DNA from: Hymenopus coronatus
Lineage: Eukaryota > Arthropoda > Insecta > Mantodea > Hymenopodidae
DNA length: 64,000 nucleotides
Direction: 5' to 3'
Assembly: GCA_030762935.1 (NCBI GenBank)
Contig: CM060895.1
Coordinates: 39,547,001 to 39,611,000 of the forward strand
Under the pieces are notes generated by a model. The model searched no databases. It was not told where the DNA came from and was given only the letters and a program-made list of their open reading frames with translations. This document shows positions 395 through 63,596 of the stretch, in pieces. Position 1 is the first letter of the stretch; each line of letters starts with the position of its first letter. Both the position numbers and the translations under genes were made by a program.

Positions 395-1680
395 AGATTC
401 AATAAGTTCTTAGAAAACCCAATAAATTACACTCGTAGCATCGAAAAAAGTTTGTATTTAGTAACCGTCGTCTCTTACTAGATGACATTTAAAGTTTCAG
501 TTTTATGCATCATGTGGCTTCGTTAGTTGCCGTAAACGATTGAATCAACAATCTTCTGTTTATTTAGAAAAATGGAATAAAACGAGTTTCGTGCGCTGAT
601 TAAACACTTATATTTAAAAGGTTTAACACCGAAAGAGTTAAGAGCCGAGTTGGGTGAAGTTTATGGCACATCTGCTACAGCGTTTGCAACAATTTACAAT
701 TGAATAAATGAATTTAAACTGGCCGAACATCCACAAATGATGAACATCGTTCTGAACGTCCAGTAGAAGTGACTTCTTCCGAAATTATTGACAAAATCCA
801 GGATATGGTTTAGAGTGATCTAGAAATTAAAGCTCGCGAAACAGTAGAGGCCACAGGCAAAAGTCACTATTTTCTCAATTTTGCACAAAAATTAGGTCTG
901 ACAAGATGGGTGCTGCGTTTGCTTTAAATGGAGAATAAACGCCATCGTGAATCGATTCAGAAGCTGGTTTGGCACTTTTCCGACGCAATCCTGGCAAGTT
1001 TCTGCATCGATGCATAACTGTGGATGAAACATGGATAAACTACTTCACTCCAGAGACAAAAGAAGTTGAAAAGTGGGTTTTTAAATGCGAACCGGCTCCG
1101 GAAAATGCAAAGGTGCAGAAATTTACAGACAAGGTGACGGCCTCGGGTTTTTTTTTTGGGGGGGGGGGATACACGCGGAATCATCTACATTGATTATCTG
1201 CAGAAAGGAAGAAGGATAATTGGAGAATATAATGCATTGTTAATGCGCTGTTGAACGGAGAAACCAAGAAAAAGCACCCTCATCTGGAAAAGAAAAAGAT
1301 GTTCTTCCATCAAGACAATACAAGAGTGCACAACTGCGCAGTTTCGAAGAAAGGAATTATAGAACCAAGGTTCGAATTACTACAATATCCACCGTATTCA
1401 CTAGACTTGGCCCCCAGAGACATATTTTTATTTCCAAACTTGAAAAAGTGGCTCGGCGGAAAACGTTCACGTCTAACGAAGAGGTCATATCCCAAACAGA
1501 TGCCTATTTTGAGGGCATTCCGTAATCCACTTTTGGAAGGCTTAAAACAGTTGGAGAAACGCTGAGATAAGTGTATCTAGCTAATAGGAGATCGAAAAAA
1601 AAAAAAAAAAAAAAAAAGAATTTACGAAAAATAATTTGTTTTTCTATCTTTTTCTTGGGACTTATTGAACGCCCCTCGTA
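395..1680 (+). mobile_element. Degenerate mariner element (mariner 1)
   Basis: The right terminal inverted repeat lies at about 1653-1680; its reverse complement starts TACGAGGGGCGTTCAATAAG. The left end near 398-418 keeps the matching part (TTCAATAAGTTCTTAGAAA), with the outermost bases diverged. The length of about 1.29 kb is normal for mariner. It abuts the LINE fragment, so it probably inserted into it. A run of A at 1596-1616 and long T and G runs near 1147-1168 have eroded the copy. Confidence 0.8.
572..1565 (+). pseudogene. mariner transposase pseudogene
   Basis: This encoded a DD34D cut-and-paste transposase acting on the flanking inverted repeats. The N-terminal helix-turn-helix part is visible (FRALIKHLYLKGLTPKE, then IYN-stop-INEFKL). 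The first catalytic Asp lies in TVDETW near 1020. The second is in FFHQDN near 1302-1319 and the third is in LDLAPRD near 1405-1423, with 34 residues between the second and third, as is usual for mariner. It is clearly inactive. There is a TAA at codon 3, a TGA near 700, several frame changes, and a homopolymer expansion (T then G runs, 1147-1168) that breaks the catalytic domain between the first and second Asp. Confidence 0.88.
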
Positions 1681-3024: not shown

Positions 3025-3839
3025 TCTGATGTGTTCCATTCACATGACTTTCTATACATCTCTGCAACAAATTATTGTTAAAAAGCTTAAGCTTCTATTT
3101 ACTTCATGCTAATCGACAAAAAAATTAGCAGAAATAATCTTATTACTTACTTCCTTGTAAGTAGAACTGAAATAAGGGTGTACCATAGGTTTAAGTGATA
3201 GTCAAAAGCTGGTTGCTATGTGAATGAAGTTCCTTTGTTTGTATGGACAGGAGTTGATAATTCCTGTATGAGTTTTTCAAAGCTGAAACCAAAAACAAGG
3301 AATACCTCAAAAACGACCAGCTCCAAGAGAAAAATATATATGAACATAAACTGTGTGTTTTAATGTGCTCTACATTTTTTGTGTAGTAAGTTTTTGTCCA
3401 TTTCTTACGGTTTAGCAGTTATGCAAAATTCCGTAAAATTCACTCAGAATAGTCTTTAGAGGCTATTCCCAGAAAATTCAAAATATTCATTTTATTTGTC
3501 ATGTAAATATCTTTAATATACGATATTTTAATCAAAATCGTTAGAGCCATTTTTAAGAAAATCCAAATGTTCAAAAAAAAGTTCCATGTAAAGGGTAGTT
3601 TGGGTTGGGGGGATTTTTCTCAAAATCTTCGTGTCGCATCCCTGGAAGATACTAAACTTAAATGCCAAGTTTGGTATTTTAGCGACTTTTCGTTTTTGAG
3701 TTACCGTGTTCACAGACAATACTTTTTCTGGATACAGGGGACCCTAAAACATATATTTCCGGTAAAATCCCGTTATGAAATTTTTGGTGGAGTGCAATAC
3801 CTTCTCTATACACTATGTACATAATACTGTAGAGAAAGT
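3025..3839 (+). mobile_element. Rep1 copy (sense)
   Basis: Left end TCTGATGTGTTCCATTCACA at 3025; right end TAGAGAAAGT at 3830-3839. The copy lacks the microsatellite: the sequence jumps from the GTTCACAGAC motif to the GGATACAGGGGACC block at 3712-3740. Flanked by A runs on both sides. Short ORFs across it are not conserved between copies. Confidence 0.9.
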
Positions 3840-3950
3840 AAAAATACACATTGTATAGCAGTAATACACTGGCCATTATTGTAAATGGTGTGTACCTATA
3901 CATACTGTACTGCGAGCCCACCATATAACACAAGTATGTACTAAATTGTT

Positions 3951-4839
3951 ACTTTCTCTATACCTATTGTGTATATAGTGTATAGAGATGGTATTGTATT
4001 GCACCCAAAATTTTGATACCCGGCTTTCAACGGAAATACGTGTTTTGAGAATCCCTGAATCCAAAAAAAAGCATTTATAGAAAAGTGTCCGTGTGTGTCC
4101 GTCTGTGTGTGCGTGCGTGTCTGTCTGTCTGTCTGTCTGTCTGTATGTATGTGGGCAGCATAGTTCAAAAACGAAAAGTCCGTTAAAAACCAAACTTGGT
4201 ATTTAGGTTCAGTATCTTCCAAGGATGCGATTCGAAGATTTTTAAAAATCTTCGCACACCCAACTACCCTTTACATGGAACTTTTTTCGAAAATTTAGAT
4301 TTTCTCAAAAACGGCTAACGATTTTGATTAAAATATCATATATTAAAGATATTTACCTGACAAATAAAATGTATATCTTGAATTTTCTGGGAATAGCCTC
4401 TGATGACTACTTTACCCTGGATGAATTTTACGGAATTTTGCATAGCTTATAAACCATACGAGAAAGACAAAAACCTACCACACAAAAAAAATGTAGAGCA
4501 CATTAAAACGCATAATTTATGTTATACACATTATTTTCTTGGAGTGGGTCGTTTTTTAGATATTCCTTGTTTTTTGTCTCAGCTTTAAAAAACTTATTTT
4601 CTCCTCATTCCTCATTCAGGAATTTATCAACTCCTGTCCATACAAACAAAGGAACTTCAGTCACATGGCAATCACCTTTTGACTATCACTTTAACCTTGG
4701 TACTCCCTTATTTCACTTCTTCTTACAAGGAAGGAAGTAATAAGACTATTTCTGCTAATTTTTTTCTCGATTACATGAGCTTGTTAACAATAATTGATGC
4801 AGAGATGTAGAGGAAGTCATGTGAATGGAACACATCAGA
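3951..4839 (-). mobile_element. Rep1 copy (antisense)
   Basis: Full length. The right terminus ACTTTCTCTA at 3951 and the left terminus CATCAGA at 4839 are shown on the plus strand. The microsatellite position (4085-4150) is occupied by GT-rich sequence and a (GTCT)n run instead of (CA)n. It forms a tail-to-tail pair with the copy ending at 3839, with a 111-bp spacer between them. Confidence 0.92.
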
Positions 4840-7072: not shown

Positions 7073-8408
7073 ATACGAGTTACGTCCAGAAAGTAAGTTC
7101 CGTTTGGTAATAACATTAAATTGTGTACAGATACAGAATAATTATTTATTGCACAAAATTCTACAACTCTTAAACTACTTTTCCATATAACTGCCGAAAT
7201 TTTGCAGGCATTTGTAATAGCGTGGCACAAGTTTTTATATACCTTCTTCATAGAAGCTTGCCGCCTGTGTCTTCAAAAAGTTGGAAACATTTTCTTTCAG
7301 CTCTTCGTCATTGTTGAAGTGTTGACCGCCAAGGAAAGATTTGAGATGTAAGAACAGATGAAAGTCGCTAGGAGCGAGGTCAGGGCTGTACGGAGAATGG
7401 TTAAACACGTCCCAGCCAAATCCCTGTAGGAGGTTTTTCGTCACATTTGCAGTGTGCGGTCGTGCGTTGTCGTGAAGAAAAACAACACCTTTTGACAGCA
7501 ATCCTCGGCGCTTATTCTGTATTGCGCGGCGCAATTTCCTAAGTGTCTCGCAATAAACATCTGCTTTGATTGTTTGACCACGCGGTAAGAAATCAATGAG
7601 TAAGATGCCTTTCCAGTCCCAGAACACTGTGCACATCATTTTTCGAGGTGTCAAGATTTTTTTCAGCTTAACCTTTGCTGGGGATGAAGTGTGCCTCCAT
7701 TCCATTGATTGCCGCTTACTTTCAGAGGTGTCGTAAGAAACCCAAGTCTCATCTCCTGTGACTATCTGTTTCAGAAATTCTTCGCCGTCTTCATCATAAC
7801 GGGTTAAAAACTGAAGTGCACTACCCATCCGTTTTGTTTGGTGTTGCTCAGTAAGAATCTTTGGTACCCAACGTGAACAAAGTTTACGAAATTTCAGTTT
7901 TTCGGTAACAATTTCATGAATTAGTGATCGTGAGCTTTGGGGAAATTCCATAGCGAGAGCACTAATTGTAAACTTGCGGTTTTCCTGGATCTTGTCATCA
8001 ATCGCGTGAACCAGTTCTTCTGTAACCAAAGATGGACGCCCACTTCGTTCTTCATCGTGCACTTCACTACGTCCTTCATTGAATTGTCGGACCCATCTTC
8101 TCACCATTGAATCACTCATCGCATTTTGTCCAAACTTCGCAAATTTGCTGATAAATTTCAATTGGTTTCATTTTCTTAGCATTCAGAAAACGAATCACAG
8201 ATCTGAATTCACAAGCGGTGGGATTTTCAATCAACACCGACATTGTAAACAAGCACAACAAAGCGTATGTGGCTGACAGCGATCCCAAAATAGCGCACGT
8301 TTCTTCTCCTTGATATAGAGCGCTACCGCGCATGTGCGGAACTGCGATCGCAGCGCTGCAGCGAAGATAAATTGAAACGGAACTTACTTTCTGGACGTAC
8401 CTCCGATA
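7073..8408 (-). mobile_element. Nearly intact mariner element (mariner 2)
   Basis: Terminal inverted repeats are 25 of 25 identical over the core: 7081-7105 (TACGTCCAGAAAGTAAGTTC...) against the reverse complement of 8375-8399. The outer 7-9 bases differ slightly. Both ends lie in TATATA sequence, consistent with the TA target used by this superfamily. Length is about 1.34 kb. Much younger than mariner 1 judging by its long open frame and matching ends. Confidence 0.92.
7175..8243 (-). pseudogene. mariner transposase, one frameshift and one late stop
   Basis: This is a mariner-family transposase of about 355 codons, starting at the ATG at 8241-8243 (MSVLIENPTACEFRS). The N-terminal DNA-binding region includes VIRFLNAKKMKPIEIYQQIC and VRRWVRQFNEGR. 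The catalytic Asp residues are in VTGDETW, FLHDNARPH and SPDLAPSDFHLF; the last two are 34 residues apart (DD34D). The linker has the family's WVPKILTEQHQ region. Two lesions are visible. A frame change lies near 8130-8140, after the QQICEV segment. A TAA at 7235-7237 comes about 20 codons before the natural stop at 7175. A 308-codon frame otherwise stays open. Without repair it should not make active full-length enzyme. Confidence 0.93.
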
Positions 8409-9218: not shown

Positions 9219-9945
9219 TCAGATGTGTCCATTCAAAAGACTTTCTCTAGAGCTGTGTTACAAATTATTGTTGAATTTATTCTTCATGCTGTTCTAGATA
9301 AACAATAGCAGAAATGGTCTTATTAGTTGGTGTCTTGTAAGTATAAGGGAAATAAGGTAGTGCACTAGACTAAAGTGATAGTCAAAACTTTTAAAAGCTT
9401 GTTGCCGTGTGATTGAAATACATTCCTTTGCACGACTAGGAGTTGATAAATACCCGTATGACAAAAGTTTAAGTATTTTGAAACCGAAACTAACTATAAT
9501 AAATCTCTCTGAAATTGTCAATCTAGAAAAGAATTGTATACGACATAAATATATATTTTAACGAGATCTACACTTTTATGCAGTAAATTTTTGTCTAACT
9601 CTTACGATTTACCAGTTATGCAAAACTCAGCAAAATTCACCTAGAATGAAGAGCTCTTAAAGTTAGTCCCATAAAATTCAAAATATACATTTTGTCATAT
9701 GAATATCTTTAATATATTAGTATTTTAATCAAAATCGTTAGAGTCATTTTTGAGAACATTAAAATCTTTGACAATTTTTCCATGTAAAACGCTGCTCGAG
9801 GTGGGGATTTTCTCCAGCAGCGAGGTGGGGATTTTCTCCAAAAGCGTCGAGTAGCCATTTCAGGAGACACTAAACTTAAACACCAAGTTTGGTATTTTAC
9901 CGACTGTTCGTTTATGAGTTGTGCCCATGTACTATGTAGAGAAAG
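9219..9945 (+). mobile_element. Rep1 copy (sense, internal deletion)
   Basis: Left end TCAGATGTGTCCATTCA; right end GTAGAGAAAGC. It lacks the whole microsatellite and GGTGGAGTGC block, joining GAGTTGTGCCCATG directly to the 3' stem-loop. It has a local duplication of GAGGTGGGGATTTTCTCCA at 9798-9840. It belongs to the older, more divergent group. Confidence 0.85.
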
Positions 9946-10243
9946 CAAAAATCAAAACACATGTTATTAGCGAATGCGCAGCCATCTATCCACAAATAAT
10001 GAAAGCAGGTAGAATGAACGGCACTCTAATGCCTCAACTCGAGTTGCAGGTTCTGTAAAAGGTGCAGAAGCAGAGGTACAGTTGTCTACCACTAAGGCCT
10101 TTGTGGACACAAGACGCAAGATGGTATGGTACAATGTTGAGACCTAGAAGGCTAACTGTGCATCACATACGACCTATGAGGTATCTCCTGAGAGATTCGT
10201 CGCGATATGATCACGTACTTAAAGTGATATAAAATGTAAAAAA
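9946..10243. other. Unassigned intergenic DNA
   Basis: No supported feature. Confidence 0.4.
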
Positions 10244-10960
10244 TCTGATGTGTACCATTCACATGACTTTCTCCATATCCCTGCAACAAATTATTCTTAA
10301 AAAGCTTATACTTTTATTTACTTTATGCTAATCAGAAAAAAATAGCAGAAATAGTCTAATTACTCGCTTCTTTGTAAGTAGAAGCGAAATAAGGGACAAC
10401 CGTAGGTTAAAAAGATAGTCAAAAGCTGGCTTCTATGTCAATGAAGTTCCTTTGTCTATATGGATAGGAGTTGACAAGTTCCTGTATGAGAAAAGTATAC
10501 GTTTTTCATAGCAGAAACCAAAAATAAGGCATGTCACAAAAACGACGTACTCCACGAAAAAAATGTATATAACATAAATTGTGTGTTTTAATGTGCTCTA
10601 CATTTTTTGTGTAGTAAGTTTTTGTCCATCTCTTACGGTTTAGCAGTTATTCAAAATTTAGTAAAATTCATCCAGAATAAACTACTCTTCAGAGGCTATT
10701 CCCAGAAAATTCAAGATATACATTTCATTTGTCAGGTAAATATGTTTAATATCCGAAATTTTACTCAAAATCGTTAGAGACATTTTTGAGAAAATCAAAA
10801 TTTTCTAAAAAATGTCCATGGAAAGGGTAGTTGAGGGTGGGGAGATTTTTCTCCAAATCTTCGTGTCGCATCCCTGGAAGATACTAAACTTAAATACCAA
10901 GTTTGGTATTTTACCGACTATTCGATTTTGAGTTATCGTGTTCACGGACACACGGACACT

Positions 10961-11006
<46 letters not shown>

Positions 11007-11142
11007 GCTTTTTGTGAAAATGCTTTTTTTGGATATTGGGGACCCTAAAACATATATTTCCGGTGAAATCTCGGTATCGAATTTTTTGGTGGAGTGCAAT
11101 ACTTTCTCTATACACTATGTACATAGTGCGTATGGAGAAAGT
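10244..11142 (+). mobile_element. Rep1, reference full-length copy
   Basis: The best single copy for describing the family. Order: TCTGATGTG end (10244); inner ACTTTCTC repeat about 23 bases in; conserved AAATACCAA-GT-TTGGTATTT palindrome (10892-10911); CGATTTTGAGTTATCGTGTTC; (CA)n at about 10966-11002; GATATTGGGGACCCTAAAAC; GGTATCGAATTTTTTGGTGG; and a 3' stem-loop TCTCTATACACTATG/CATAGTGCGTATGGAGA (11105-11138) running into the terminal GGAGAAAGT. Flanked by AAAAAA on both sides. No ORF is conserved across copies, so it is non-autonomous. Classification as a Helentron-associated (HINE/DINE-1-like) rolling-circle element is inferred from structure. Confidence 0.92.
10966..11002. repeat. (CA)n microsatellite inside Rep1
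   Basis: Pure CA/AC run lying at the fixed microsatellite position of the family. It produces spurious ORFs on both strands (poly-HT and poly-VC translations). Confidence 0.95.
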
Positions 11143-11205
11143 AAAAAACATCTACCTTTAAATGCCACAATGCGAGGTATTCACGATAAAAGACATTGGA
11201 ATGTA

Positions 11206-11388
11206 TTGCATGGCCCGCCACGGAAGTGTGGGGGTAGCGTGTCTGCCTCACATTCAATAGATTTACGAGTTCGAGCCACGCTTAGCATACGGAAACGGAT
11301 TTTGAGAAGACGAATGTTGAGTAACGCTGTATGGATTCAGAGATCATTTGAGCATCATTTCACTAATTTCAATTATCGTCCAATATGA
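11206..11388 (+). mobile_element. SINE-3 copy, sense
   Basis: Head GGGGGTAGCGTGTCTGCCTC at 11230-11249, B box GAGTTCGAGCC near 11268, and body AGAAGACGAATGTTGAGTAA. The 3' end, CGTCCAATATGACC, corresponds to the family end. A 161-codon ORF crossing Rep1 into this SINE is a chance fusion. Confidence 0.8.
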
Positions 11389-12139: not shown

Positions 12140-12512
12140 AGAAAGTAAAAGGAATGATGACTTCTCAATTGAGAGTAATGTATTGGAAAATTTAATCCAA
12201 TAAGAAAGAATATCTGAAAATGGCTAACTCTACAAAGAATGAATTGAATATAAAGTGTGGTTTTAACAAGGTCGGCACCTTACGTTATACCGGTTATGCA
12301 AAAATCACCCAGAATGAAGAGGACCTTCAGAAGCCATTCAATATATACATTTGTGATGATAATATGTTAAGAATATGGCATTTTGATCAAAACCGTAAGT
12401 TTCCAAGTAAAGGTTACTTTGGGATGGGGATTTTCTTGAATATTTTCGTGTCGCATCCTTGAGAGACCCTGAACTTTGTGCTAAGTTTGGTATTATTGGA
12501 CTTTTCGTTTTT
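12140..12512 (+). mobile_element. Rep1 host copy, left portion (interrupted)
   Basis: Older-group Rep1 sequence (GAATATCTGAAAATGGCTAA, TCGTGTCGCATCCTTGAG, GACTTTTCGTTTTT). It stops exactly in the CGTTTTT tract, where an antisense Rep1 starts at 12513. It resumes at 13382 with TTTTTGAGTTATGC. The true 5' end is not visible. Confidence 0.75.
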
Positions 12513-13381
12513 ACTTTCTCTAGCCCCATATGTCCAATGTACATAGGGATAGAGAAGTATTGTATTCCACCCAAAAATTCGATACCGAGATTTCACCGGA
12601 AATACATGTTTTAGGACCCCCTGTATCCATAAAAAGCGTTTTCAGAAAAAGGTCCGTGTGTGTCCGTGTGTCTATGAACATGATAACTCAAAAACGAATA
12701 TTAGCTAAAATACCAAACTTGGTATTTAAGTTTAGTATCTTCCAGGGATGCGATACGAAGATTTTGAGAAAAATCCCCCCCACACCAAACTACCCTTTAC
12801 ATGGACTTTTTTTCGAAAATTTTGATTTTCTTAAAAATGGCTCTAACGATTTTGATTAAAATATCGAATATTAAAGCTATTTACCTGACAAATAAAAGGT
12901 ATATCTTGAATTTTCTGGGAAAAGCTTCTGAAGACCCGTTTATTCTGGATGAATTATGCTTAATTTGGCATAACTAGTAAACCGTAAGAGATAGCCACAA
13001 ACTTACTATACAAAAAAATGTAGGGTTTTTTTTTAAAATACACAAATTATGTCATATACATTTTTCTCGTGGAGTTACCGTTTTCGAGGTACTCGTTGTT
13101 ATTAGTTTCAGTTGTGAAGTACTTATATTTTTTTTTTTTTTTTTTTGGTTCTACTCCTGGCCAAGAAAAGAAGCGATTTGTAATGACAATCGCGTAACGA
13201 CAGCTTTTAAAACATTTGACTATTGGTTTAGCCTAGTGTATTCCCTTATTTTCTTCCTACTTATAAGGAACTAAGTAATAAGAATATTGTGCTAATGAGT
13301 ACCTCGAAGAGAAGAAGAATTAACTTATGTAAGAAGTTTGTGGAACAGCTAGAGAAAGTCATGTGAGTGTAGCACATCAGA
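12513..13381 (-). mobile_element. Rep1 copy nested in another Rep1 (antisense)
   Basis: Complete insert from ACTTTCTCTA (12513) to CATCAGA (13381), inverted relative to its host. Both junctions are TTTTT, while the uninterrupted family sequence has a single T5 there. Contains a T-run (13131-13147). Confidence 0.9.
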
Positions 13382-17520: not shown

Positions 17521-17967
17521 GCTTTCTCTAGCATATATGTAAAGTCCACATAGTGGGTAGAGAAAATATTCTATTCCATCCAAAAATTCAATATCGGGAT
17601 TTCACCGAAAATAAATGTTTCAAGGGCCCTGAATCGAAAAAACTTTTGCTCGGTGTGTGTGAGTGCGGGTTGGCAGCATTACTCAAAAATAAAAAGTACA
17701 ATAAATGCCAAACTTGGTATTTAAGTTTAGTATCTTCTAAGGATGCAACACCAAGATATTCAGAAAACTCACCCAACACCAAACTACCCTTTACAATGAA
17801 TATTTTTAAAATTGTTCGATTTTTTCAAAAATGATTTACGATTTTGATTATAATACCATATGCTTAAGATATTTTATGTATATCTTAAACTTTCTGGGAA
17901 CTGCTCCTGAAGTCCTCTTCTGAATGACTTTTAAATAACTCGTAAACCTAAGAAATAGACAAAAAAA
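17521..17967 (-). mobile_element. Rep1 host copy, first portion (antisense)
   Basis: Starts GCTTTCTCTA at 17521 and is broken in the GACAAAAA tract at about 17960-17967 by a sense Rep1. The rest of the copy is at 18793-19208. Confidence 0.85.
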
Positions 17968-18792
17968 TCTGATGTGTCCATTCACATGACTTTGTCTACA
18001 TCTCTGCAACAAATTATTCCATTTACTACATCTAATCGAGAAAAAATTAGCAGAGATAGACTTATTACTTGCTTCCTTGTTAGTAGAAGCGAAATAGGTT
18101 AAAGTGATAGTCAAAAGCTGGTTGCTATGTGACTGAAGTTCCTTTGTTTGTATGGTCAGGAGTTGACAATTTCCTGTAAGAGAAAAGTATGTTTTTCAAA
18201 GCTGAAACGAAAAACAAGGAATAACTAAAAAACGATCAACTCTACGAAAAAAGTGCATATAACTTAAATTGTGTGTTTTAACGTGCTGTACGTTTTTTGT
18301 GAGGTAAGTTTTTGTCCATCTCTTATGGTTTAGCAGTAATGAATAATTCCGTAAAATTCATCCAGAACAAAGTAGTCTTCAGAGGCTATTCCCAGAAAAT
18401 TCAAGATATACATTTTATTTGTTAGGTACATAGTTTTAATATACGATATTTTAATCAAAATCGCTAGAACCATTTTTAAGAAAATCAAAATTTTCGAAAA
18501 AAGTTCCATGTATAGAGAGTTTGGGGAGGGGGGATTTTTCTCAAAATCTTCTAGTCGCATCCCTGGAAAATACTAAACTTAAATACCAAGTTTGGTATTT
18601 TACCGACTTTTCATTTTTGAGTTATTGTGTTCACAAACACACGGACACACACACGGACATTTTTCTGAAAAAGCATTTTTGGATACAGGGGACCCTAAAA
18701 CATATATTTCCGGTGAAATCTCCGTATCCAATTTTTGGGTGGAGCGCAATACCTTCTCTATACACTATGTACATAGTACATGTAGAGAAAGT
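17968..18792 (+). mobile_element. Rep1 copy nested in another Rep1 (sense)
   Basis: Insert from TCTGATGTGTCCATTCACA to TAGAGAAAGT (18783-18792), flanked by A runs. Opposite orientation to the host, at a different A-tract from the other nested pairs. Short (ACAC) microsatellite near 18637-18656. Confidence 0.9.
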
Positions 18793-18940
18793 AAAAGTAT
18801 ACTACACGAAAATGTTCATCTAGTTACATACAATTTTTGTCATACATTTTTTATTTTTCTCGTAGAGCTAACCATTTCGGAGATATTCCCTGTTATTGGT
18901 TTCAATTTTATAATACTTTTCTCAAACGGGATATCCTCAT

Positions 18941-18977
<37 letters not shown>

Positions 18978-19208
18978 TCCTTATATATATATATAAGGAG
19001 AACCAATGAAAGTAGCATAGAGACAGATTTAAAAGATTTTACTGTCGTTTAGACTGGTGTCTTTTCTTATCTCCCTTCTACTTATAAGGGATCAAGAAAT
19101 AAAACCCATTTCAGGTAATGTTTAACTTGATTAGCGTGATAGAGATAAAAGAATAATCCTTTGTAACAATAGTTTATAAAGAAAGTCATGTGAATGGGCC
19201 ACATCAGA
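18793..19208 (-). mobile_element. Rep1 host copy, second portion (antisense)
   Basis: Resumes with TACTACACGAAAATG and ends with CACATCAGA at 19208. Carries an unusual (GT)n expansion (18943-18975) in a part of the element where other copies have none. Confidence 0.85.
18943..18975. repeat. (GT)n microsatellite
   Basis: GT run inside the older Rep1 copy, followed by an imperfect palindrome CTCCTTATATATATATAAGG (18977-18996). Confidence 0.9.
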
Positions 19209-21171: not shown

Positions 21172-21270
21172 TCCTTTTTCTAGCACTCATGTACAATGTA
21201 CAAACGATAGAGAAAGTATTGTATTCCACCCAAAAATTCGATGATTTCGCCGTAATGTGTGTGTGTGTGT

Positions 21271-21334
<64 letters not shown>

Positions 21335-22990: not shown

Positions 22991-23173
22991 TCGTATGTGT
23001 TGCATTCACATGACTTTCTCTACATCTCTGCAACAAATTATTCTTAAAAAGCTAATGCGTTTATTTACTTAATGCTAATCGAGAAAAAATTAGCAGAAAT
23101 AGTCTTATTACTTGCTTCCTTGTAAGTAGAAATGAAATAAGGCAGTCCATAGGTTAAAGTGATAGTCAAAAGC
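22991..23173 (+). mobile_element. Rep1 5' fragment nested at the A5 tract (sense)
   Basis: Starts TCGTATGTGTTGCATTCACA directly after CTCAAAAA of the antisense host. It runs through the CTAATCGAGAAAAAATTAGC block and stops after GTCAAAAGC. The 3' parts of both insert and host are gone. Confidence 0.8.
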
Positions 23174-34158: not shown

Positions 34159-34293
34159 ACTTTCTCTATACGTACTATGTACATAGTGTATAGAGAAGAT
34201 ATTGCACTCCACCCAAAAATTTGATACCGAGATTTCAACGATAATATATGTTTTAGGGTCCCCTGTATCTAAAAAAAAATTCTTACGAAAAGG

Positions 34294-34328
<35 letters not shown>

Positions 34329-34881
34329 GTGTGTCTGTGAACACGATAATTCAAAAACGAAAAGTCGGTAAAATACCAAACTTGGTATTTAAGTTTAGTA
34401 TCTTCCAGAGATGCGACACGAAGATTTGAAAAAAAAAATCCCCCCACCCTAAACTACCCTTTACATGGAACATTTTTCGAAAATTTTGATTTTCTTAAAA
34501 ATGGCTCTAACGATTTTGATTAAAATTTCGTATATTAAAGATATTTACCTGACAAATAAAATGTATATCTTGAATTTTCTGGGAATAGCCTCTGAAGACT
34601 ACTTAATTCTGGATGAATTTTACGGAATTTTGAATAACTACTAAGCCGTAAGAGATGGACAAATCATATAGGAGTTTGTCAACTGCTTCCATACAAAGAA
34701 AGGAATTTCAGTGGCACAGCAACTAGCAAGGAACAAAGCAAACATAGCAACAATGAACCAAGTAATAAGAATATTTCTGCTATTTTAGTCTGATTAACAT
34801 GAAGTAAATAGAAGTCTAAGCTTATTAAGAGTAATTTGTTGCAGAGATAAAGAGAAAGTCATGTGAATGGTACACATCAGA
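34159..34881 (-). mobile_element. Rep1 copy nested in another Rep1 (antisense)
   Basis: ACTTTCTCTATACG (34159) to CACATCAGA (34881). Carries (GT)n at 34297-34325. A deletion removes about 150 bases between GAGATGGACAAA and GGAGTTTGTCAA. Younger group. Confidence 0.9.
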
Positions 34882-35411: not shown

Positions 35412-35521
35412 ACTTTCCCTACACGTACTATGTGCATAGTGTATAGAGAAGGTATTGCACTCCACCCAAAAATTCGATAGCGAGATTTCACCGGAAATAT
35501 ATGTTTTAGAGTCCACTGTAT

Positions 35522-35569
<48 letters not shown>

Positions 35570-36334
35570 CATTTTCACAATAAGGTCCGTGTGAATGTGT
35601 GTATGTGTCCATGTGTCAGCATGTCCGTGTGTCTGTGAACATGACAACTCAAAAACGAAAATTCAGTAAAATACCGAACTTGGTATTTGAGTTTAGTATC
35701 TTCCAGGGATGCGACACGAAGATGAGAAAAATACCCCCACCACAAACTACTCTTTACATAGAACTTTTTTCGAAAATCTTGATTTTCTCAAAAATGGCTC
35801 CAACGATCTTAATTAAAATATCATATATTAAAGATATTTACCTGACAAATAAAATGTATATCTTGAATTTTCTGGGAATAGCCTCTGAAGACTACTTTAT
35901 TCTGGATGAATTTTACACAATTTTGCATAACTGCTACACCGTAAGAGATGGAGAAAAACCTATCACACAAAAAATATAGAGCACTTTAAAGCACACAATT
36001 TATGTTACATGCATTTTTTTTCGTGGAGTTGATCGTTTTTTAGATATTCCTTGTTTTTAGTTTCGGCTTTAAAAAACTTATAGATTTCTCATACAGGACT
36101 TTGTCAACTCCTATCCTTATAAACAAAGGAACTTTAATCACATAGGAACCAGCTTTTGACTGTCACTTTAGCCAATGGTATTCCTTATTTCGCTTCTACT
36201 TACAAGGAAGCAAGTAATAAGACTATTTCTGCTATTTTTTTCTCGATTAGCTTGAAATAAATAGAGGCATACGCTTTTTAACAATAACTTGTTGCAGAGA
36301 TGTAGAGAAAGTCATGTGAATGGAACAGATCAGA
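35412..36334 (-). mobile_element. Rep1 copy (antisense, full length)
   Basis: ACTTTCCCTACACG to AGATCAGA. A short A-tract found in every copy (before GCATTTT) is expanded here to about 45 A (35524-35568). Flanked by T-runs on both sides. Confidence 0.92.
35524..35568. repeat. Poly(A) expansion inside Rep1
   Basis: Uninterrupted A-run replacing the usual A6-8. Confidence 0.95.
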
Positions 36335-39714: not shown

Positions 39715-39758
<44 letters not shown>

Positions 39759-39762: not shown

Positions 39763-40632
39763 ACTTTCTCTATACGCACTATGTACATAGTGTATAGAGA
39801 AGATATTGCACTGCATCAAAAAATTCGATACCGAGATTTCACCGGAAATATATGTTTTAGGATCCCCAATATCCAAAAAAAGAATTTTCACAAAAAGGTC
39901 CGTGTGTGTGTGTGTGCGTGTGTGTGTGTGTGTGTGAACACGATAACTCAAAAACGAAAAGTCGGTAAAATACCAAACTTGATATTTAAGTTTAGTATCT
40001 TCCAGGGATGCGACACGAAGATTTTGAGCAAAATCCCCCCACACCCAACTACCCTTTACATAGAACTTTTTTCGAACATTTTGATTTTCTCAAAAATGGC
40101 TCTAACTATTTTGATTAAAATTTCGTATATTAAACATATTTACCTGACAAATAAAATGTATATTTTGACTTTTCTGGGAATAGCCTCTGAAGAGTAGTTT
40201 ATTTTGGATGAATTTTACTGAATTTTGAATAACTGCTAAACCGTAAGAGTTGGACAAAAACTTAATGCACAAAAAATGTAGATCACGTGAAAATACACAA
40301 TTTATGTTATATACATTTTTTCTGGAGTTCGATGTTTTTGAGACATCCTTATTTTTGGTTTCTGCTATGAAAAACGTATACTTTTCTCATACAGAAATTT
40401 GTCAACTCCTATCCATATAAACAAAGGAACTTCATTGACATAGCAACCAGCTTTTGACTATCACTTTAACCTAAGATAGTCCCTTATTTCGCTTCTACTT
40501 ACAAGGAAGCAAGCAATAAAACTATTTCTGCTAATTTTTTCTGATTAGCATAAAGTAAATAGAAGTATAAGCTTTTTAAGAATAATTTGTTGAAGGGATA
40601 TAGAGAAAGTCATGAGAATGGTACACATCAGA
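39763..40632 (-). mobile_element. Rep1 copy nested in another Rep1 (antisense)
   Basis: ACTTTCTCTATACGCACTAT to ACACATCAGA. (GT)n at 39901-39936. Younger group. The palindrome is altered to CCAAACTTGATATTT. Confidence 0.92.
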
Positions 40633-41917: not shown

Positions 41918-42722
41918 GCTGATGTGTTCCATTCACATGACTTTCTCTCTCTTATAAAGTATTGTTAAAAAGCTTACTCTTCTATCTACTTCATGTTAAT
42001 TGAGACCAACATTAGCAGAAATGGTCGTATTGCTTGCTTCCTTGTAAGTAGAAGGGAAATAAGGGAGTACCATAAGCTAAAGCGATAGTCGAATCTTTTA
42101 CAAGCTGGTTGCTATGTGATTGAAGTTCCTTTGTTTGTATGGCCAGAAGTTGGCAAATTCCCATATGAGAAAAGCATAAGGATTTTAAAGCTGAAACCAA
42201 TAACAAGGAATATCTCAGCTCTACAAAAAAAAAGTGTAGGACTTAAAGTATGTGTTTTTACGAGATTTACATTTCTGTATAGTAAGTGTTTGTTATTCTC
42301 TTACGGTTTGCCAGCTATACAAAATTCAAAAAAAAGGCATCCAGAAGAAAGTTCAAGATATGCATTTTATTTGTCATGTAAATATCTTTAATACACAATA
42401 TTTTACTCAAAATCACCAATCATTATGAGAAAAGAATAATTTTTCCATATAAAGGGTTGTTGGGGTGGGAGGATTTTCTTGAAAACCTTCGTGTCGCATC
42501 CTTGGGAGATACTTAACTTAAATACCAAGTTAAGTATTTAACGGACCTTTCGTTTTTAAACTATGCTGTCCACAGTCACACACACTGACCTTTTTCTAAA
42601 AATGCATTTGTTTTAATTCTGGAGGACTCAAAACAAGTATTTTAATGAAATCTCGGTATCGAATTTTAGGTGGAATACAATACCTTCTTTATACACTATC
42701 CAGCAATGCATTTAGAGAAAGT
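41918..42722 (+). mobile_element. Rep1 copy (sense)
   Basis: GCTGATGTGTTCCATTCACA to TAGAGAAAGT. Almost no microsatellite (CACACACACTG only, near 42577). Confidence 0.9.
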
Positions 42723-44804: not shown

Positions 44805-45706
44805 TCTGATGTGTACCATTCACATGACTTTCTCTATATCCCTTCAACAAATTATTCTTGAAAAGCTTATACTTCTATTAACTTCATGCTAATCAGTAAA
44901 ACATTAGCAGAAATAGCCATATTACTTGCTTCCTTGTAAGTAGAGGTGAAATAAGGGAGTACCATAGGTTAAAGTGATAAAAGCTGGTTGCTATGACACT
45001 GAAGTTCCTTTGTTTGTATGGACACAGTTGACAAATTCCTGTATGAGAAATGTATAAGTTTTTCATAGCAGAAACCAAAAATACGGCATGTCACAAAAAC
45101 GACGAACTCCACGAAAAAAATGTATATAACATAAATTGTGCGTTTTAATGTGCTCTACATTTTTTGTGTAGTAAGTTTTTGTCATCTCTTACGGTTTAGC
45201 AGTTATTCAAAATTTAGTAAAATTCATCCAGAATAAGCATGTCTTCAGAGGCTATTCCCAGAAAATTCAAGATATACATTTTATTTGTCAGGTAAATATG
45301 TTTAATATACGAAATTTAAATCAAAATCCTTTGAGCCATTCTTGAGAAAATCAAAATTTTCGAAAAAAGTTCCATGTAAAGGGAAGTTGGGGTTGGGGGG
45401 ATTTTTCTCAAAATCTTCGTGTCGCATCACTGGAAGATACTAAACTTAAATACCAAGTTATCGTGTTCACAGACACACGGACACACACACACACACGGAC
45501 CTTTTTCCGAAAATGCTTTTTTTTAGATATAGGGAACCCTAAAACATATATTTCCGGTGAAATCTCGGTATCGAATTTTTTGGTGGAGTGCAATACATTC
45601 TCTATACACTATGTACATAGTGCGTATAGAGAAAGTAAAATCGAATTTTTTGGTGGAGTGCAATACATTCTCTATACACTATGTACATAGTGCGTATAGA
45701 GAAAGT
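44805..45706 (+). mobile_element. Rep1 copy (sense) with duplicated 3' end
   Basis: TCTGATGTGTACCATTCACA to TAGAGAAAGT. Short (CA)n at 45483-45499. The last 70 bases occur twice in tandem without a mismatch (45571-45640 and 45641-45710). Confidence 0.93.
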
Positions 45707-45710
45707 AAAA
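45571..45710. repeat. Perfect 70-bp tandem duplication of the Rep1 3' end
   Basis: Each unit starts TCGAATTTTTTGGTGGAGTG and ends GTATAGAGAAAGTAAAA, so it includes the 3' stem-loop and the terminus plus AAAA. Confidence 0.97.
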
Positions 45711-47309: not shown

Positions 47310-48163
47310 TCTGATGTGTTCCATTCACATGAATTTCTTTACATCTCTGCAAAAAAATGTATTGTTAAAAAGCATAGGCTTCTATTTACTTCACGTTAAT
47401 CGAGAAAAAAAATATTCTTATTACTTGCTTCCTTGTAAGTAAAAGGGAAATAAGGGAGTACAATAGGTTAAAGTGATAGTCAAAAACTGGTTGCTATGTG
47501 ACTGAAGTTCCTTTGTTTGTGTGGACAGGAGTTGACAAATTCCTGTATGAGAAAATTATAAGTTTTCAAAGCTGAAACGAAAAGCCAGGAATATCTTAAA
47601 AACGATCAACTCCACGCAAAAAATGTATATGACATAAATTGTGTGTTTTAGTGTGCTCTACGTTTTCTGTAGAGTAAGTTTTTTCCCCATCTCTTACGGT
47701 TTAGCAGTTATGCACAATTCCGTAAAATGCATCAAGAATAAAGTACTCTTCAAAGGCTATTCCCAGAAAATTCAAGATATACATTATATTTGTCAGGTAA
47801 ATATCTTTAATATAAGACATTTTAATCAAAATCGTTAGAGCCATGTTTAAGAAAATCAAAATTTTCGAAATTTTTTCCATGTGAATTTTTTTCGTTTTTG
47901 AGCTATACTGCCCACAGACACCGGAAATATATGTTTTGAGACTCCCTGAATCCGAAAAAGCATTTTTAGAAAAAGGGCCGTGTGTGTCTGTGGGCAGTAT
48001 AGCTCAAAAACGAATACACGGACATTTTTCTAAAAATATTTTTTTTGTATTCAGGGGGACCAAAAGCATGTATTTCCAGTGAAATCTCGGTATCGAATTT
48101 TTGGATGCATTACAATACCTTTTCTATCCCTATGTACATTGTACATATAGGACTAGAGAAAGT
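47310..48163 (+). mobile_element. Rep1 copy (sense) with internal inverted duplication
   Basis: TCTGATGTGTTCCATTCACA to TAGAGAAAGT. The part around the T5 tract is rearranged. An inverted copy of the GGACC-CATTTTT block and a 31-bp perfect inverted repeat replace the microsatellite. Confidence 0.9.
47891..48014. repeat. 31-bp perfect inverted repeat, 62-base loop
   Basis: Arms 47891-47921 (starts TTCGTTTTTGAGCTATACTG) and 47984-48014 are exact reverse complements. Confidence 0.95.
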
Positions 48164-49333: not shown

Positions 49334-49928
49334 TATGATGCGTTGCATTCACATGACTTTCTCTACTTATTCCTCAACAAACAAAAGCTTATTTTTCTAT
49401 CTACTTCACGTGCATCGATATAAACATTTTCAGAAATAACTTTATTACTATATTTATATTCAGGTCTCTTTGCCTGATTAAGAGAAAGAAATATGATTAA
49501 AGAATTTCCATTTAAGACAGTTAACTCCACAAAAACAAAAATGTATCTGACATGAACTGTGTGTTATAACCAGATCTACAGTTTTTTTTGTAGTAATATT
49601 TTCTCTGTGTCTTATAGTTTACCAGTTTTCAAAAGTCGTCCAGAATGAACAGAACTTCAGAGGCAATTCCTAGAAAATTTAGATATGCATTTCATTAAGC
49701 ATAAAACTATCTTAAGCATGTGATATTTTATTCAAAATCGTTAGAGCCAGTTTTAAGAAAATCACAATTTTCCGAATGTTTCGTGTAAAGGGTAGTTTGG
49801 GACAGAGGTACTTTCTCGATGCTTGGAAAAAGTTGCTTATGCATATTAAGTTTGGTATTTCAGACTTTTCATTTTTGATCTATGCTGTTTACAGACACAT
49901 ACGGACACGCAAGACTTTTTTCTACAAA
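49334..49928 (+). mobile_element. Rep1 tandem unit 1 (3' truncated)
   Basis: TATGATGCGTTGCATTCACA. An internal deletion removes the CTTGTAAGTAGAAGG block. It stops at GACTTTTTTCTACAAA, where unit 2 begins. Confidence 0.87.
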
Positions 49929-50805
49929 TCTGATGTGTTCCTTTCACATGACTTTCTCTACATCTCAGTAACAAATTAGTGTTAAACAGCGTATTCGGCT
50001 AAGTACTTTATAATATTCGAGACAAGCATTAGCAGAAATTGTCTTAATTACTTGCTTCCTTGTAAGTAGAAGGAACATAAGGGAATACACTAGGCTAAGG
50101 CGATAGTCAAATCTTTTAAAAGCTAACCGGTTGCCAAGTGGTTGAAATCCGTTTCTATGCATGGCCAGTAGTTTACAAATTTCCATATGAGAAAACTTGA
50201 AGTATTTTAAACCTGAAACCAATAACCAGGGAAATCTCAGAAATAGTCACCTCCGCAAAAAAAAATGCATATGAGAAAAATTGAGTGTTTTAACGAGATC
50301 TCCATGCTTTGTGTGGTAAGTTTTTGTCCATCTGTTGTGGTTTACAAGTTGTGCAAAATTCATTAAAATTCATCCAGAAATAAAGAGGTCTTTAGAGGCT
50401 TTTCCCAAAACGTTCAAGATATACGTTTTATTTGTCATGAAAATATCTTTAATATACGGTGTTTCCAATTTTGAGAAAATCAGAATTTTCGATTTTTTTT
50501 CCGTATAAGGAGTAATTTGGGGTGGGGTATTTTTCTCGAAATTGTGTTGCATCCCTGGAAGATACTAAACTTAAATACGAAGTTTGGTATTTTACGGACT
50601 TTTAGTTTTGAGTTATCGTGTTCACATACACTCGGACACACACGCACACGCAAGCACACACACATGTGCGCGGATCTTTTTCTAACAATGTCTTTTGGGA
50701 TACAGGGGGGCCGAAAATTTTTATTTCGGTGAAATGTGGGTATCAAATTTTGGTTGGAATGCACTACCTTCTATACATTGTGTACATAGTACGTGTAGCG
50801 AAAGT
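49929..50805 (+). mobile_element. Rep1 tandem unit 2
   Basis: TCTGATGTGTTCCTTTCACA to TGTAGCGAAAGT. Microsatellite degenerate (CACACGCACACGCAAGCACA near 50638). Confidence 0.9.
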
Positions 50806-50810
50806 AAATA

Positions 50811-51631
50811 TCTAATGTATTGCATTAAGCCGAGGTTCTCTGCCTGTTTTGCAATCTAAGTATTCTTACAAAATATTATTATTTTATTTTATCATACCAA
50901 TCGAGATAAACTTAAGCAGAAATGATCTTATTAATGCTTTCTTGTAAGTAGAAGGAAAATAAGGGAGTACACTAGGCTAAAGAGATAGCAAACAGCTTTT
51001 AAACATTTGACTAATTGAATGAAATTCGGTTCTTTTTCCATGGCAAAGAGTATAACAAAAGAAGTAGGAATGACAAATGTCCATTTGAGAAAATAAGTGT
51101 TTTAAAACTGAAACCAATAACAAGAGGGATGTCTCGGAAAAAAAAAAGTAATTAAAAAAAAAACGAATATGATATAAATGTGTTTTAACGAGATCTAAAT
51201 GTCTGTTCTGTAAGTTTTTGTCTAGTTCTTGCAGTTTACTAGTTACACAAAATTCATCCGGAATGAAGAGGTCTTCACCAGCTACTTCCAGAAAATTCCA
51301 GATATACATTTCATTTGTCATGAGAATACTTTAAACATACGGTATTTTAATCAGAAATCTCAAAGCTATTTTTGAGAAATTCAAAATTTTCGAACATTTT
51401 TCCACGTAAACAATATTTTGGGCTGGGTAAACTTTTTTGAAAGACTTCCTGTCGTATTCTTGTAAGATATTGGTCTTAATATAAAATTCGGTACCTACTT
51501 TAAAATACATTCTTTATTTTTATTCAAGAGATCTCAAAAGATGATTTCCCTATCAAGTCGCAGTATCGAATTTTGAGTGGAATACAATACCTCTCTATCT
51601 ATGTACATTTTACATGCACGCTAGAGAAAGT
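50811..51631 (+). mobile_element. Rep1 tandem unit 3
   Basis: TCTAATGTATTGCATTAAGC to TAGAGAAAGT, following unit 2 after AAATA. No microsatellite. Confidence 0.88.
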
Positions 51632-51641
51632 AAAATAAATA

Positions 51642-52489
51642 TCTGATGTGTTCCATTCCCATGACTTTCTCTACCTGTTCTGCAAACAAACTGTTTTACA
51701 AAAGACTATTCTTTTATATATGTACATCAATCTAATCAAGATAAACATTAGCAGAAATTGCCTTATTACCTGATTCCTTATAAGCAAGGTAAATAAGAGA
51801 ATACACTAGGCCAAAGCGATAGTCCAATATTTAAAAACTTGTCGATATGTGAACAATTAAGTACGGTTCGGTTTGCATTACCAGTAAAACAAAAGTGAAT
51901 TGAAACGAAAAGTGACTCAGTTTAAGAAAAGTTAGGTAGTTTAAATTTGAAACCAATAAGAAGGAATATATTGTAAATGTTCAACTCTATAACAAGAGTA
52001 TATTGTGTGTTTTAACGAGATCTACATTTTTTGGTGTTTTAAGTTTTTGTCTATTTCTTACTGTTTACTAGCTATTCAAATTAAGCAAAAGTCTCCAGAA
52101 GCTATTCTCAGAAAATTCAATACGAAAATTTTATTTATAGTGTAAATATCTTTAATATACGGTATTTAAATCAAAATCGTTCAAGTCATTTTTGAAAAAA
52201 AAATTTCAAAAAGGTTACATGTACAATGTAATTTGGGGTGGGCGGTATGTTCTTAAAAAACTTCGTGGCGCATCCTTTGAACAGACTAATCTTAAATATC
52301 AAATGTTGCATTTAACGGTATTTTAGTTCTTGAACTATGCGGTCCACAGATTCACAAACGGACCTTTTTCTATTTTTTTTTTTTTTTTTTTACTCGGGGA
52401 ACTTCTAAATATATTTTAGCAAAATATCGACATCGAATTTTGGGTGGAATACAATAGGTACCTTCTCTATATACTAATGTAGAGAAAGT
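51642..52489 (+). mobile_element. Rep1 tandem unit 4
   Basis: TCTGATGTGTTCCATTCCCA to TAGAGAAAGT, following unit 3 after AAAATAAATA. T-run at 52374-52390. Confidence 0.9.
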
Positions 52490-52988: not shown

Positions 52989-53707
52989 TCTGATGTGTTC
53001 CATTCACATGGCTTTCTCTACATCTTTGCAACAAATTATTGTTAAAAAGCTTATGCGTCTAATTATTTCACGTTTATCGGGGAAAAAAAATTGCAGAAAT
53101 AGTCTTATTACTTGTTTCCTTGTAAGTAGAAGCGAAATAAGGGAGTACCACAGGTTAAAGTGATAGTCAAAAGCTGGTTGCTATGTGACTGAAGTTTCTT
53201 TGTTTGTATGGGCAGGAGTTGACAAATTCCGTATGGGAAAAGTATAAGTTTTTAAAGGTGAAATCAAAAACAAGGAATAACTTAAAAACGATCAAATCCA
53301 CGAAAAAAATGTATATAACATAAATTGTGTGTTTTAAGTGCCCTACATTTTTTGTTTTGTAAGCTTTTGTCCATCTCTCACAGTTTAGCAGTTATGTAAA
53401 ATTCCGTAAAATTCATTCAGAATAAAGTAGTCTTCAGAGGATATTCCCAGAAAGTTCAAAATATACATTTTATTTGTCAGGTAAATATCTTTAATATACG
53501 ATATTTTAATCAAAATCGTTACAGCCATTTTTAAAAAAATCAAAATTTTCAAAAAAATGTCTATGTAAAGGCTAGTTTGGGGTGAGGGGATTTTTATCAA
53601 AAGCTTCGTGTCGCATCCCTGGAAGATACTAAACTTAAATACCAAGTTTGGTATTTTACCGACTTTTCGTTTTTGAGTTATCGTGATCACAGACACACGG
53701 ACACATA
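52989..53707 (+). mobile_element. Rep1 copy (sense, 3' truncated)
   Basis: TCTGATGTGTTCCATTCACA after A17. Keeps the perfect palindrome (AAATACCAAGTTTGGTATTT near 53637-53656). It ends at ACACACGGACACATA, at the microsatellite position. Confidence 0.9.
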
Positions 53708-62729: not shown

Positions 62730-63422
62730 TGTGATGTGTTCCATTCACATGACTTTTCTACATATCTGCAGCAAAGTTTTGTTAAAATACTTATTCTTCT
62801 ATTTACTTCATGCTAATCGAAAAAAACATAAGCAGAAATTGTATTATTATGTTTCTATGTAAATAGAAGGGAAACAAGGGAGTATCATAGGCTAAAGCTA
62901 TAGTCAAATGTTTAAAAAGCTGGTTGCTATGTGTTTATATAGACAGAGAGGACAAATTCCCGTATGAGAAAAGTATAAGTATTTTAGAGCTGAAAAAAAT
63001 AACAAGAATACTTCCTAAACGGTCAACTCCACCACTAAAAACATGCATACAACATAAATTGTTGTTTTAACGAGTCTACATTTTTTGTTTAGTAAGCTTT
63101 TGTCTATCTCTTACGGTTTACCAGTTATTGAAAATCCGCAACATTCATCCAGAATGAAGTTGTCTTTAGAGGCTATTCCCAGAAAATTCAAATTATACAT
63201 TTTGTTTATCATGTAAATTATTATAATATACGATATTTTAATTAAAATCGTCAGAGCCATTTTTGAGAAAATGAAAATTTTCACAAATTTTTTCACGTAA
63301 AGGGTAGTTGGGTGTGGGGGATTTTCTTGAAAATCTTCGTGTCGCATCCTTGGCAGATAGTGAACTTAAATATCAAGTTTGATATTTCATGGACTTTTCG
63401 TTTTTGAGCTATGCTGTCAACA

Positions 63423-63465
<43 letters not shown>

Positions 63466-63596
63466 TGTTTCTAAAAATGTTTTTTTTTATTCAGGAGAAT
63501 CAAAAACATATATTTCCGTGGAATCTGGGTATCGAATTTTGAGGTGCAATACAATACATTCTCTATACGCAATGCATATAGTACTATAGAGAAAGT
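62730..63596 (+). mobile_element. Rep1 copy (sense)
   Basis: TGTGATGTGTTCCATTCACA to TAGAGAAAGT. (CA)n at 63424-63460. 3' stem-loop degenerate (ATACGCAATGCATATAGTAC). Confidence 0.92.

What the first reader, a model, noticed from the sequence alone, without database searches (positions are those of the whole stretch)
10244..11142. Rep1: an abundant non-coding family with Helentron/HINE-like structure
About 33 copies or pieces occupy roughly 23 kb of 64 kb. Seen directly: a fixed TCTGATG 5' end, a fixed TAGAGAAAGT 3' end, ACTTTCTCTA near the 5' end inverted at the 3' terminus, a 3' stem-loop just before the terminus, a microsatellite at one internal position, A-tract flanks and no conserved ORF. 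In established knowledge, subterminal inverted repeats, a 3' hairpin, an internal microsatellite and insertion in T/A-runs are features of Helentron-associated elements (DINE-1 type). Calling Rep1 one of them is inference.
Basis: partly seen in the sequence, partly recalled or inferred. Interest (0 to 1): 0.8.

Follow-up and report, generated by a model that had tools for sequence, protein, structure and literature searches.

The report
Abundant DINE-1-like rolling-circle transposon family
About a third of this stretch of an unidentified genome is made of copies of one short non-coding jumping element whose ends match the known DINE-1/HINE family of rolling-circle transposons, once it is read in the opposite direction to the one first proposed.

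Summary
The repeat is real: Rep1 covers 23,483 of 64,000 bases in 38 masked stretches, at least four of them plain A/T tracts. Fifteen near-complete copies are 72.6-94.0% identical to an 869-bp consensus. The reverse complement has the published DINE-1/HINE order: T-run, 5' repeat ACTTTCTCTATA at the terminus, its inverted partner 18 nt on, GT-rich microsatellite about 140 nt in, 3' repeat 22 nt from the end, small stem-loop, CAGA, T-run (papers). The hairpin called 3' is the 5' one. Five nested copies sit in A-runs of older Rep1 copies, inverted to the host copy, four at one site. No Rep/helicase, endonuclease or reverse-transcriptase domain was found in 55.3 of 64 kb. The parent genome could not be searched, so the autonomous partner is untested. 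Absence of a target duplication is unproven (5-7 extra T in three nested insertions). I judge it an ordinary new HINE-type family.

The parts
10244..11142 (-). Reference Rep1 copy of the finding (899 bp); in DINE-1/HINE orientation it lies on the minus strand
11131..11142 (-). 5' subterminal inverted repeat (ACTTTCTCCATA on the minus strand), at the 5' terminus
11101..11112 (-). Second inverted copy next to the 5' repeat (TATAGAGAAAGT on the minus strand), pairing with it
11114..11127 (.). Self-complementary ACTATGTACATAGT between the two 5' arms
   Evidence: read; same region folded in other copies
10964..11003 (.). (AC/GT)20 microsatellite at the fixed block-A position; GT-rich, some with GTCC/GTCT units, in other copies
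10266..10277 (-). 3' subterminal inverted repeat (TATGGAGAAAGT on the minus strand), 22 nt from the 3' end
10248..10264 (-). 3' stem-loop (5-bp stem, 7-nt loop) followed by CAGA and the T-run
3025..3839 (-). near-complete copy, 94.0% to consensus
3951..4839 (+). near-complete copy with TTGTT on both sides
12513..13381 (+). near-complete copy nested at the hotspot of an older copy (host piece 12401-12512 and right flank); clean T5 to T5+T5 case
17968..18792 (-). near-complete copy nested in an older plus-strand copy (17522-19208) at consensus 488-492
34159..34881 (+). copy nested in an older minus-strand copy (33863-35058) at the hotspot
35412..36334 (+). near-complete copy
39763..40632 (+). 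near-complete copy nested in an older minus-strand copy (39119-40754) at the hotspot; flanks expanded with long T tracts
22991..23173 (-). 3' end of a copy inserted at the hotspot of an older copy (22816-22990); its far side is lost
41918..42722 (-). near-complete copy
44805..45706 (-). copy with a duplicated 5' terminus: two identical 70-bp units at 45570-45710
47310..48163 (-). near-complete copy with an inverted block-A piece inside (47919-47992)
49336..52489 (-). head-to-tail array: a copy cut off at consensus 122, then copies 49929-50805, 50811-51631 and 51642-52489, the last three separated by 5 and 10 A/T bases
52989..53705 (-). copy with intact 3' end, cut off at the microsatellite (consensus 151)
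62731..63596 (-). near-complete copy

Best explanation
Rep1 is a family of short, non-coding elements of the HINE/DINE-1 type, the non-autonomous partners of the Helentron/Helitron2 group of rolling-circle transposons. Shown: the two unlike ends, the subterminal inverted repeats, the 5' inverted partner, the microsatellite, the T-run insertion sites, nested and head-to-tail copies, and no recognised protein domain. Inferred: a Rep/helicase protein made by an unseen autonomous element nicks the 5' end (ACTTTCTCTA side), peels off one strand, terminates at the internal 3' repeat plus stem-loop (CATGTG...CACATCAGA), and pastes the strand into a run of T. The minus strand of the reported coordinates is the sense strand of the element.
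For: Order of the parts in the reverse orientation matches published DINE-1 and HINE descriptions: 5' repeat 0-2 nt from the end, inverted partner beside it, GTCY-rich microsatellite in block A, internal 3' repeat followed by a stem-loop, TT/T-rich targets (passages; text part). Measured here: exact end-to-end repeat of 12 bp in 4 of 15 copies and at least 9 bp in 7 of 15, against 43 of 3000 random pairs at 9 or more; best 3' arm, sought 12-31 nt from the end, at 20-22 nt in 16 of 17 copies and 18 nt in the other; 5' hairpin z -1.9 to -4.7 in 5 of 5 copies folded; runs of 3 or more T directly outside the 5' end in 12 of 15 copies and TTGTT in the other 3; 5 nested insertions, all in A-runs of the host copy and inverted to it; a head-to-tail array and a copy with a doubled 5' terminus, both reported for Helitron-like elements (passages).
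Against: No autonomous partner seen. The 3' stem-loop is short (5 bp) and not more stable than shuffles in the 4 copies folded (z 0.68, -0.93, 0.06, -1.36). The 5' hairpin alignment has no pair with both sides changed (0 of 8, covariation term +0.46). The 3' repeat lies 22 nt from the end, closer than the 38-60 nt of the mite HINEs. Two of 15 copies (50811, 51642) have a single T before an A at the 3' side, where mite HINEs have at least two T. In 3 nested cases the flanks hold 5, 6 and 7 more T than the host copies would predict, and one copy has TTGTT on both sides, which could be a short target duplication.
Confidence: 0.87

Rival explanations
1. A MITE moved by a cut-and-paste DDE transposase that duplicates about 5 bp of T-rich target.
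For: 5-7 extra T in 3 nested insertions; TTGTT on both sides of 3951-4839; identical stretches of 4 or more bases on both sides in 11 of 15 copies, 9 of them pure T, one TTGTT, one ATTTTT with an uncertain boundary.
Against: The two termini are unlike (ACTTTCTC against CAGA). The inverted repeat is terminal at one end only, 22 nt in at the other. Of 6 copies in which the 5-mer outside the 5' end is not pure T, only 1 has the same 5-mer on the other side. The mariner-like transposase in the window (7238-8167) lies outside any masked Rep1 stretch.
Confidence: 0.07
2. A canonical Helitron in the reader's orientation: TC start, hairpin near the 3' end.
For: Starts TCTGATG; a strong hairpin lies at the other end.
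Against: No 3' CTRR (the end is AAGT), insertion between A and A rather than A and T, and the hairpin is terminal and made of the inverted repeat rather than standing about 11 nt inside (definition).
Confidence: 0.03
3. A SINE or other retroposon with oligo-A tail.
Against: T/A-runs occur on both sides, and both ends are fixed. No Rfam match and no tRNA gene. Nested copies sit in A-runs that other host copies also have.
Confidence: 0.02

Closest known systems
DINE-1 / INE-1 of Drosophila (Yang & Barbash 2008, PMC2374699; passages read)
   Same: 5' subterminal repeat at or within 2 nt of the end, partial inverted partner beside it, GTCY-rich variable microsatellite in block A, internal 3' repeat, stem-loop a few nt downstream of it, T-rich TT targets, no significant ORF.
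   Different: Unrelated repeat sequence by eye (ATACCCGTTACTC in D. melanogaster, ACTTTCTCTATA here); 3' stem is 5 bp against 7-11; no species-type central repeat block seen.
HINE families of the mite Metaseiulus and Helentrons (Thomas et al. 2014, PMC4067079; abstract, parts 1-2 of 8 of the text, and passages read)
   Same: 12-15 bp subterminal repeats, palindromic 5' repeat, 3' palindrome, T-rich targets, variable number of flanking T, no coding capacity.
   Different: 3' repeat 22 nt from the end here, 38-60 there; at least two T on each side there, 13 of 15 copies here; autonomous partner known there, not searchable here.
Cg_HINE of the Pacific oyster (PMC7492417; passages read)
   Same: 5' repeat plus complementary IR, then a microsatellite (GTCY/GTCC/GTCK in several), 3' repeat plus palindrome, T-rich targets.
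   Different: Oyster elements carry satellite-like central repeats. In Rep1 the tandem-repeat scan shows, besides simple tracts and the doubled 5' terminus, only a 56-bp unit twice (31171-31288) and a 24-bp unit twice (9797-9846).
FoHeli Helitron2-type elements of Fusarium (PMC5148889; part 1 of 8 and passages read)
   Same: Asymmetric terminal inverted repeats, hairpins at the ends, 3' repeat about 20-40 nt from the terminus, self-insertion, copies with more than one 5' terminus.
   Different: Different terminal sequences and targets (TNAT and A for FoHeli1/2 in the main text); those encode Rep/helicase.

Membership tests
HINE / DINE-1 (non-autonomous Helentron) | Subterminal inverted repeats of about 11-15 bp, terminal or nearly so at the 5' end and internal at the 3' end | tested here: met
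   12 bp exact in 4 of 15 copies, 9-11 bp in 3, shorter in 8; 3' arm 22 nt from the end; chance of 9 or more is 43 of 3000
HINE / DINE-1 (non-autonomous Helentron) | Second inverted copy next to the 5' repeat | tested here: met
   8 pairs between the two arms, each kept in 14-16 of 16 aligned 5' ends, none with both sides changed; hairpin z -1.9 to -4.7 in 5 copies
HINE / DINE-1 (non-autonomous Helentron) | Variable, GTCY-rich microsatellite in the 5' block | tested here: met
   GT-rich tract of 17-83 nt, some with GTCC/GTCT, at consensus about 138-168 in 16 of 22 copies or pieces, plus 21188-21921 where the anchor failed (TG39); not seen in 3025, 47310, 50811, 51642, 34882. GT units outnumber GTCY in most.
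HINE / DINE-1 (non-autonomous Helentron) | Stem-loop just downstream of the 3' repeat | tested here: inconclusive
   5 pairs, each kept in 19-21 of 22 3' ends; two copies (28216, 30676) each with one pair changed on both sides; not more stable than shuffles in 4 copies folded
HINE / DINE-1 (non-autonomous Helentron) | Insertion in T-runs (TT) | tested here: met
   two or more T directly outside the 5' end in 15 of 15 and outside the 3' end in 13 of 15 (allowing one changed base in 62731; TATTT in 50811 and 51642); 5 nested insertions in A/T runs
HINE / DINE-1 (non-autonomous Helentron) | No target-site duplication | tested here: inconclusive
   3 nested insertions show 5, 6 and 7 extra T; homopolymer targets hide whether these are duplicated or carried
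HINE / DINE-1 (non-autonomous Helentron) | Shares ends with an autonomous element encoding Rep/helicase(/endonuclease) | not testable with these tools
Canonical Helitron (Helitron1) | 5' TC, 3' CTRR, insertion between A and T, hairpin about 11 nt inside the 3' end | tested here: not met
MITE (cut-and-paste) | Terminal inverted repeats at both ends | tested here: not met
   repeat at the very end on one side only, 22 nt inside on the other
SINE | RNA polymerase III-type head | tested here: inconclusive
   no Rfam match at gathering scores, no tRNA gene (bacterial settings); box motifs as such not scanned

The most novel reading that the evidence does not exclude
Rep1 is a HINE-like family whose integration adds a near-constant block of about five T (or TTGTT) at the 5' side, either carried by the element or made by a short staggered cut, and which keeps its two subterminal repeats matched within a copy (for example CTCC at both ends of 10244-11142). 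This would mean its integration chemistry differs from the duplication-free insertion described for Helentrons, and that the two ends pair during transposition.
Probability: 0.12. Interest if true: 0.5.

Novelty: new member of a known kind. Interest (0 to 1): 0.25.

Why it matters
It also shows how such elements are easily oriented backwards when no autonomous partner is known. The nested copies give internal empty sites in T-runs without needing a second genome.

Tried and rejected
Searches outside the window: two 20-22-base consensus patterns had no match in viral contigs. One pattern had a single match in a Scalindua bin; compared with the Rep1 consensus that locus shows only the 20-base match and isolated shorter ones, the longest 29 bases at 76%, so it was set aside as chance. 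Two Rep1 reading frames, used to look for species carrying the family through spurious predicted proteins, gave no match at E 0.001. Six Rep1 strings searched in open papers gave none.

Autonomous partner in the window: six-frame Pfam scans of 55.3 of 64 kb gave only the mariner-type Transposase_1 (and HTH_32, below its cut-off) at 7238-8167. Not scanned: 3031-4839, 9219-11183, 34300-36329, 51270-51599 and 61456-64000.

Do the two subterminal repeats of a copy match each other more than those of other copies? Over 17 copies the own-copy mean was 10.7 of 14 against 10.2 shuffled (p 0.008). Without three CTAG-type copies it was 10.8 against 10.5 (p 0.09). Subfamily structure alone can do this, so no claim is made.

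Fixed 5-bp target duplication: considered because of the T5/T5 and TTGTT/TTGTT flanks. Not adopted, because 5 of 6 informative copies do not match.

Host identity: the mariner protein is 95% identical to an unnamed protein and 94% to one from Anoplophora glabripennis, with 84% in Trichonephila and 62% in Periplaneta, in the best 120 of 4739 matches. Mariners move between species, so this only hints at an arthropod.

The confidence of the main reading went from 0.88 to 0.87 and of the MITE rival from 0.06 to 0.07, because two copies lack TT at the 3' side and the 5' hairpin shows no compensatory pairs.

Full report
What is there. The window (35.5% G+C) holds one dominant repeat. Using 14 copies as queries, 23,483 of 64,000 bases are masked in 38 stretches, at least four of which look like plain A/T tracts. 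Fifteen near-complete copies give an 869-bp consensus; they are 72.6 to 94.0% identical to it.

Ends. ACCTTCTCTATACACTATGTACATAGTACGTATAGAGAAAGT|A-run. TCTGATG is exact in 11 of 15 copies and TAGAGAAAGT in 12 of 15; the rest have one changed base. Read as the reverse complement, the order is: T-run, ACTTTCTCTATA (repeat at the very 5' end), an 18-nt spacer with the self-complementary ACTATGTACATAGT, the inverted partner TATAGAGAAGGT, about 100 nt of sequence, a GT-rich microsatellite, about 670 nt of AT-rich sequence, TAGAGAAAGT (3' repeat), ATGTG-7 nt-CACAT stem-loop, CAGA, T-run.

Comparison with published structure. DINE-1 is described with a 5' repeat 0-2 nt from the end, a partial inverted copy beside it, a GTCY-rich variable microsatellite in block A, a 3' repeat that is clearly internal, a stem-loop a few nt downstream of it, and TT targets (PMC2374699, passages). 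Mite HINEs have palindromic 5' repeats and 3' palindromes, flanked by T (PMC4067079). Oyster HINEs have 5' repeat, complementary IR, a microsatellite (GTCY/GTCC/GTCK in several), then 3' repeat and palindrome (PMC7492417, passages). The 2008 paper itself notes that 5' and 3' are arbitrary without an ORF.

Strength of the features. The exact repeat between the two ends is 12 bp in 4 of 15 copies, 9-11 bp in 3 and shorter in 8. In 3000 random pairs from unmasked sequence 43 reach 9 and 15 reach 10. The 5' hairpin is more stable than shuffles (z -3.61, -4.28, -4.67, -3.25, -1.90 in five copies), but the 16-copy alignment gives 0 of 8 pairs with both sides changed. The 3' stem-loop is not more stable than shuffles (z 0.68, -0.93, 0.06, -1.36 in four copies), although each of its 5 pairs is kept in 19-21 of 22 copies and two copies, 28216 and 30676, each have one pair changed on both sides. 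A GT-rich tract stands at the microsatellite position in 16 of 22 copies or pieces, and in 21188-21921 by the tandem-repeat scan; five others lack it or are rearranged. TTTTT occurs at 0.5% of unmasked places, yet 9 of 15 copies have five or more T directly outside the 5' end; the others have TTTT (2), TTT (1) or TTGTT (3). At the 3' side 13 of 15 have at least two T; 50811 and 51642 have TATTT.

Insertion sites. Five copies lie inside older Rep1 copies: 12513-13381, 17968-18792, 34159-34881, 39763-40632 and 22991-23173. All five sit in an A-run of the host copy and are inverted relative to it, as a T-run preference with fixed polarity demands. Four of five use the same host place, CTCAAAAACGAAAAG at consensus 179-193, although the consensus offers nine A-runs and seven T-runs of five or more. 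A possible sixth case, 49929-50805 at the TTTTT of consensus 123-127 of the copy beside it, has the same orientation as that copy and its other side is missing. For 12513-13381, 13 of 15 junction-spanning alignments to other copies lack exactly five bases at the junction, one lacks six, one none. Against the consensus, 17968-18792 gains six A/T and 34159-34881 gains seven. The flanks of 39763-40632 are expanded by long T tracts and the far side of 22991-23173 is lost, so neither was used. Published HINE empty sites likewise vary in the number of T. Whether the extra T are duplicated target or carried by the element is not resolved. Of six copies whose 5' flanking 5-mer is not pure T, one (3951-4839, TTGTT) has the same 5-mer at the other side.

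Arrangements. Copies 49929-50805, 50811-51631 and 51642-52489 stand head to tail, separated by 5 and 10 A/T bases, next to a fourth copy cut off at consensus 122. Copy 44805-45706 has its 5' terminal 67 bases plus three T exactly twice. Tandem insertions, self-insertions and doubled short 5' termini are described for Helitron-like elements (PMC5148889, passages).

Mechanism. Inferred from membership: rolling-circle copying by a Rep/helicase supplied in trans, start at the 5' repeat and hairpin, stop at the 3' repeat and stem-loop, joining into T-runs. None of these steps is shown here. The protein source is unknown: twelve requests to search the parent genome did not complete, and scans of 55.3 of 64 kb in six frames found no Rep, PIF1 helicase, endonuclease or reverse-transcriptase domain.

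Verdict. It is a new family of a well-known kind. I found no published match to its sequence, but the only sequence comparisons possible were six strings against open papers, patterns against viral and prokaryote contigs and two translated frames; Dfam and Repbase were not available.

Noticed in passing
window 7238-8167, minus strand: An open frame of 310 aa for a mariner-type transposase, 95% identical to an unnamed protein and 94% to one from the beetle Anoplophora glabripennis: probably a young, horizontally spread mariner.
   Followed up: partly
window 951-1562, plus strand: A second, broken mariner-like reading frame (by eye; Pfam did not call it).
   Followed up: no
window 45570-45710: The 5' terminus of one Rep1 copy with three T is duplicated exactly (70 bp twice, 100% matching), although its element is about 7% from consensus.
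   Followed up: partly
window 47919-47992: A block-A piece of Rep1 lies inverted inside copy 47310-48163, where the microsatellite is usually found.
   Followed up: no
window 12513, 22991, 34159 and 39763 (insertion points; Rep1 consensus 179-193): Self-insertion hotspot CTCAAAAACGAAAAG just after the microsatellite: 4 of 5 nested copies.
   Followed up: partly
window 11211-11290: Sequence beside the reference copy that looks by eye like a tRNA-derived SINE head (GGGGGTAGCGTGTCTGCCT ... GAGTTCGAGCC); not called by ARAGORN or Rfam.
   Followed up: no
window 26089-26502, plus strand: Reading frame whose end (...VWNSLPEDVRD...FKQRIRAY) resembles, from memory, the C-terminus of non-LTR retrotransposon ORFs; no Pfam match.
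   Followed up: no
window 24997-25136: 70-bp unit twice, 94% matching, overlapping long reading frames that look G+C-richer than the rest of the window by eye.
   Followed up: no
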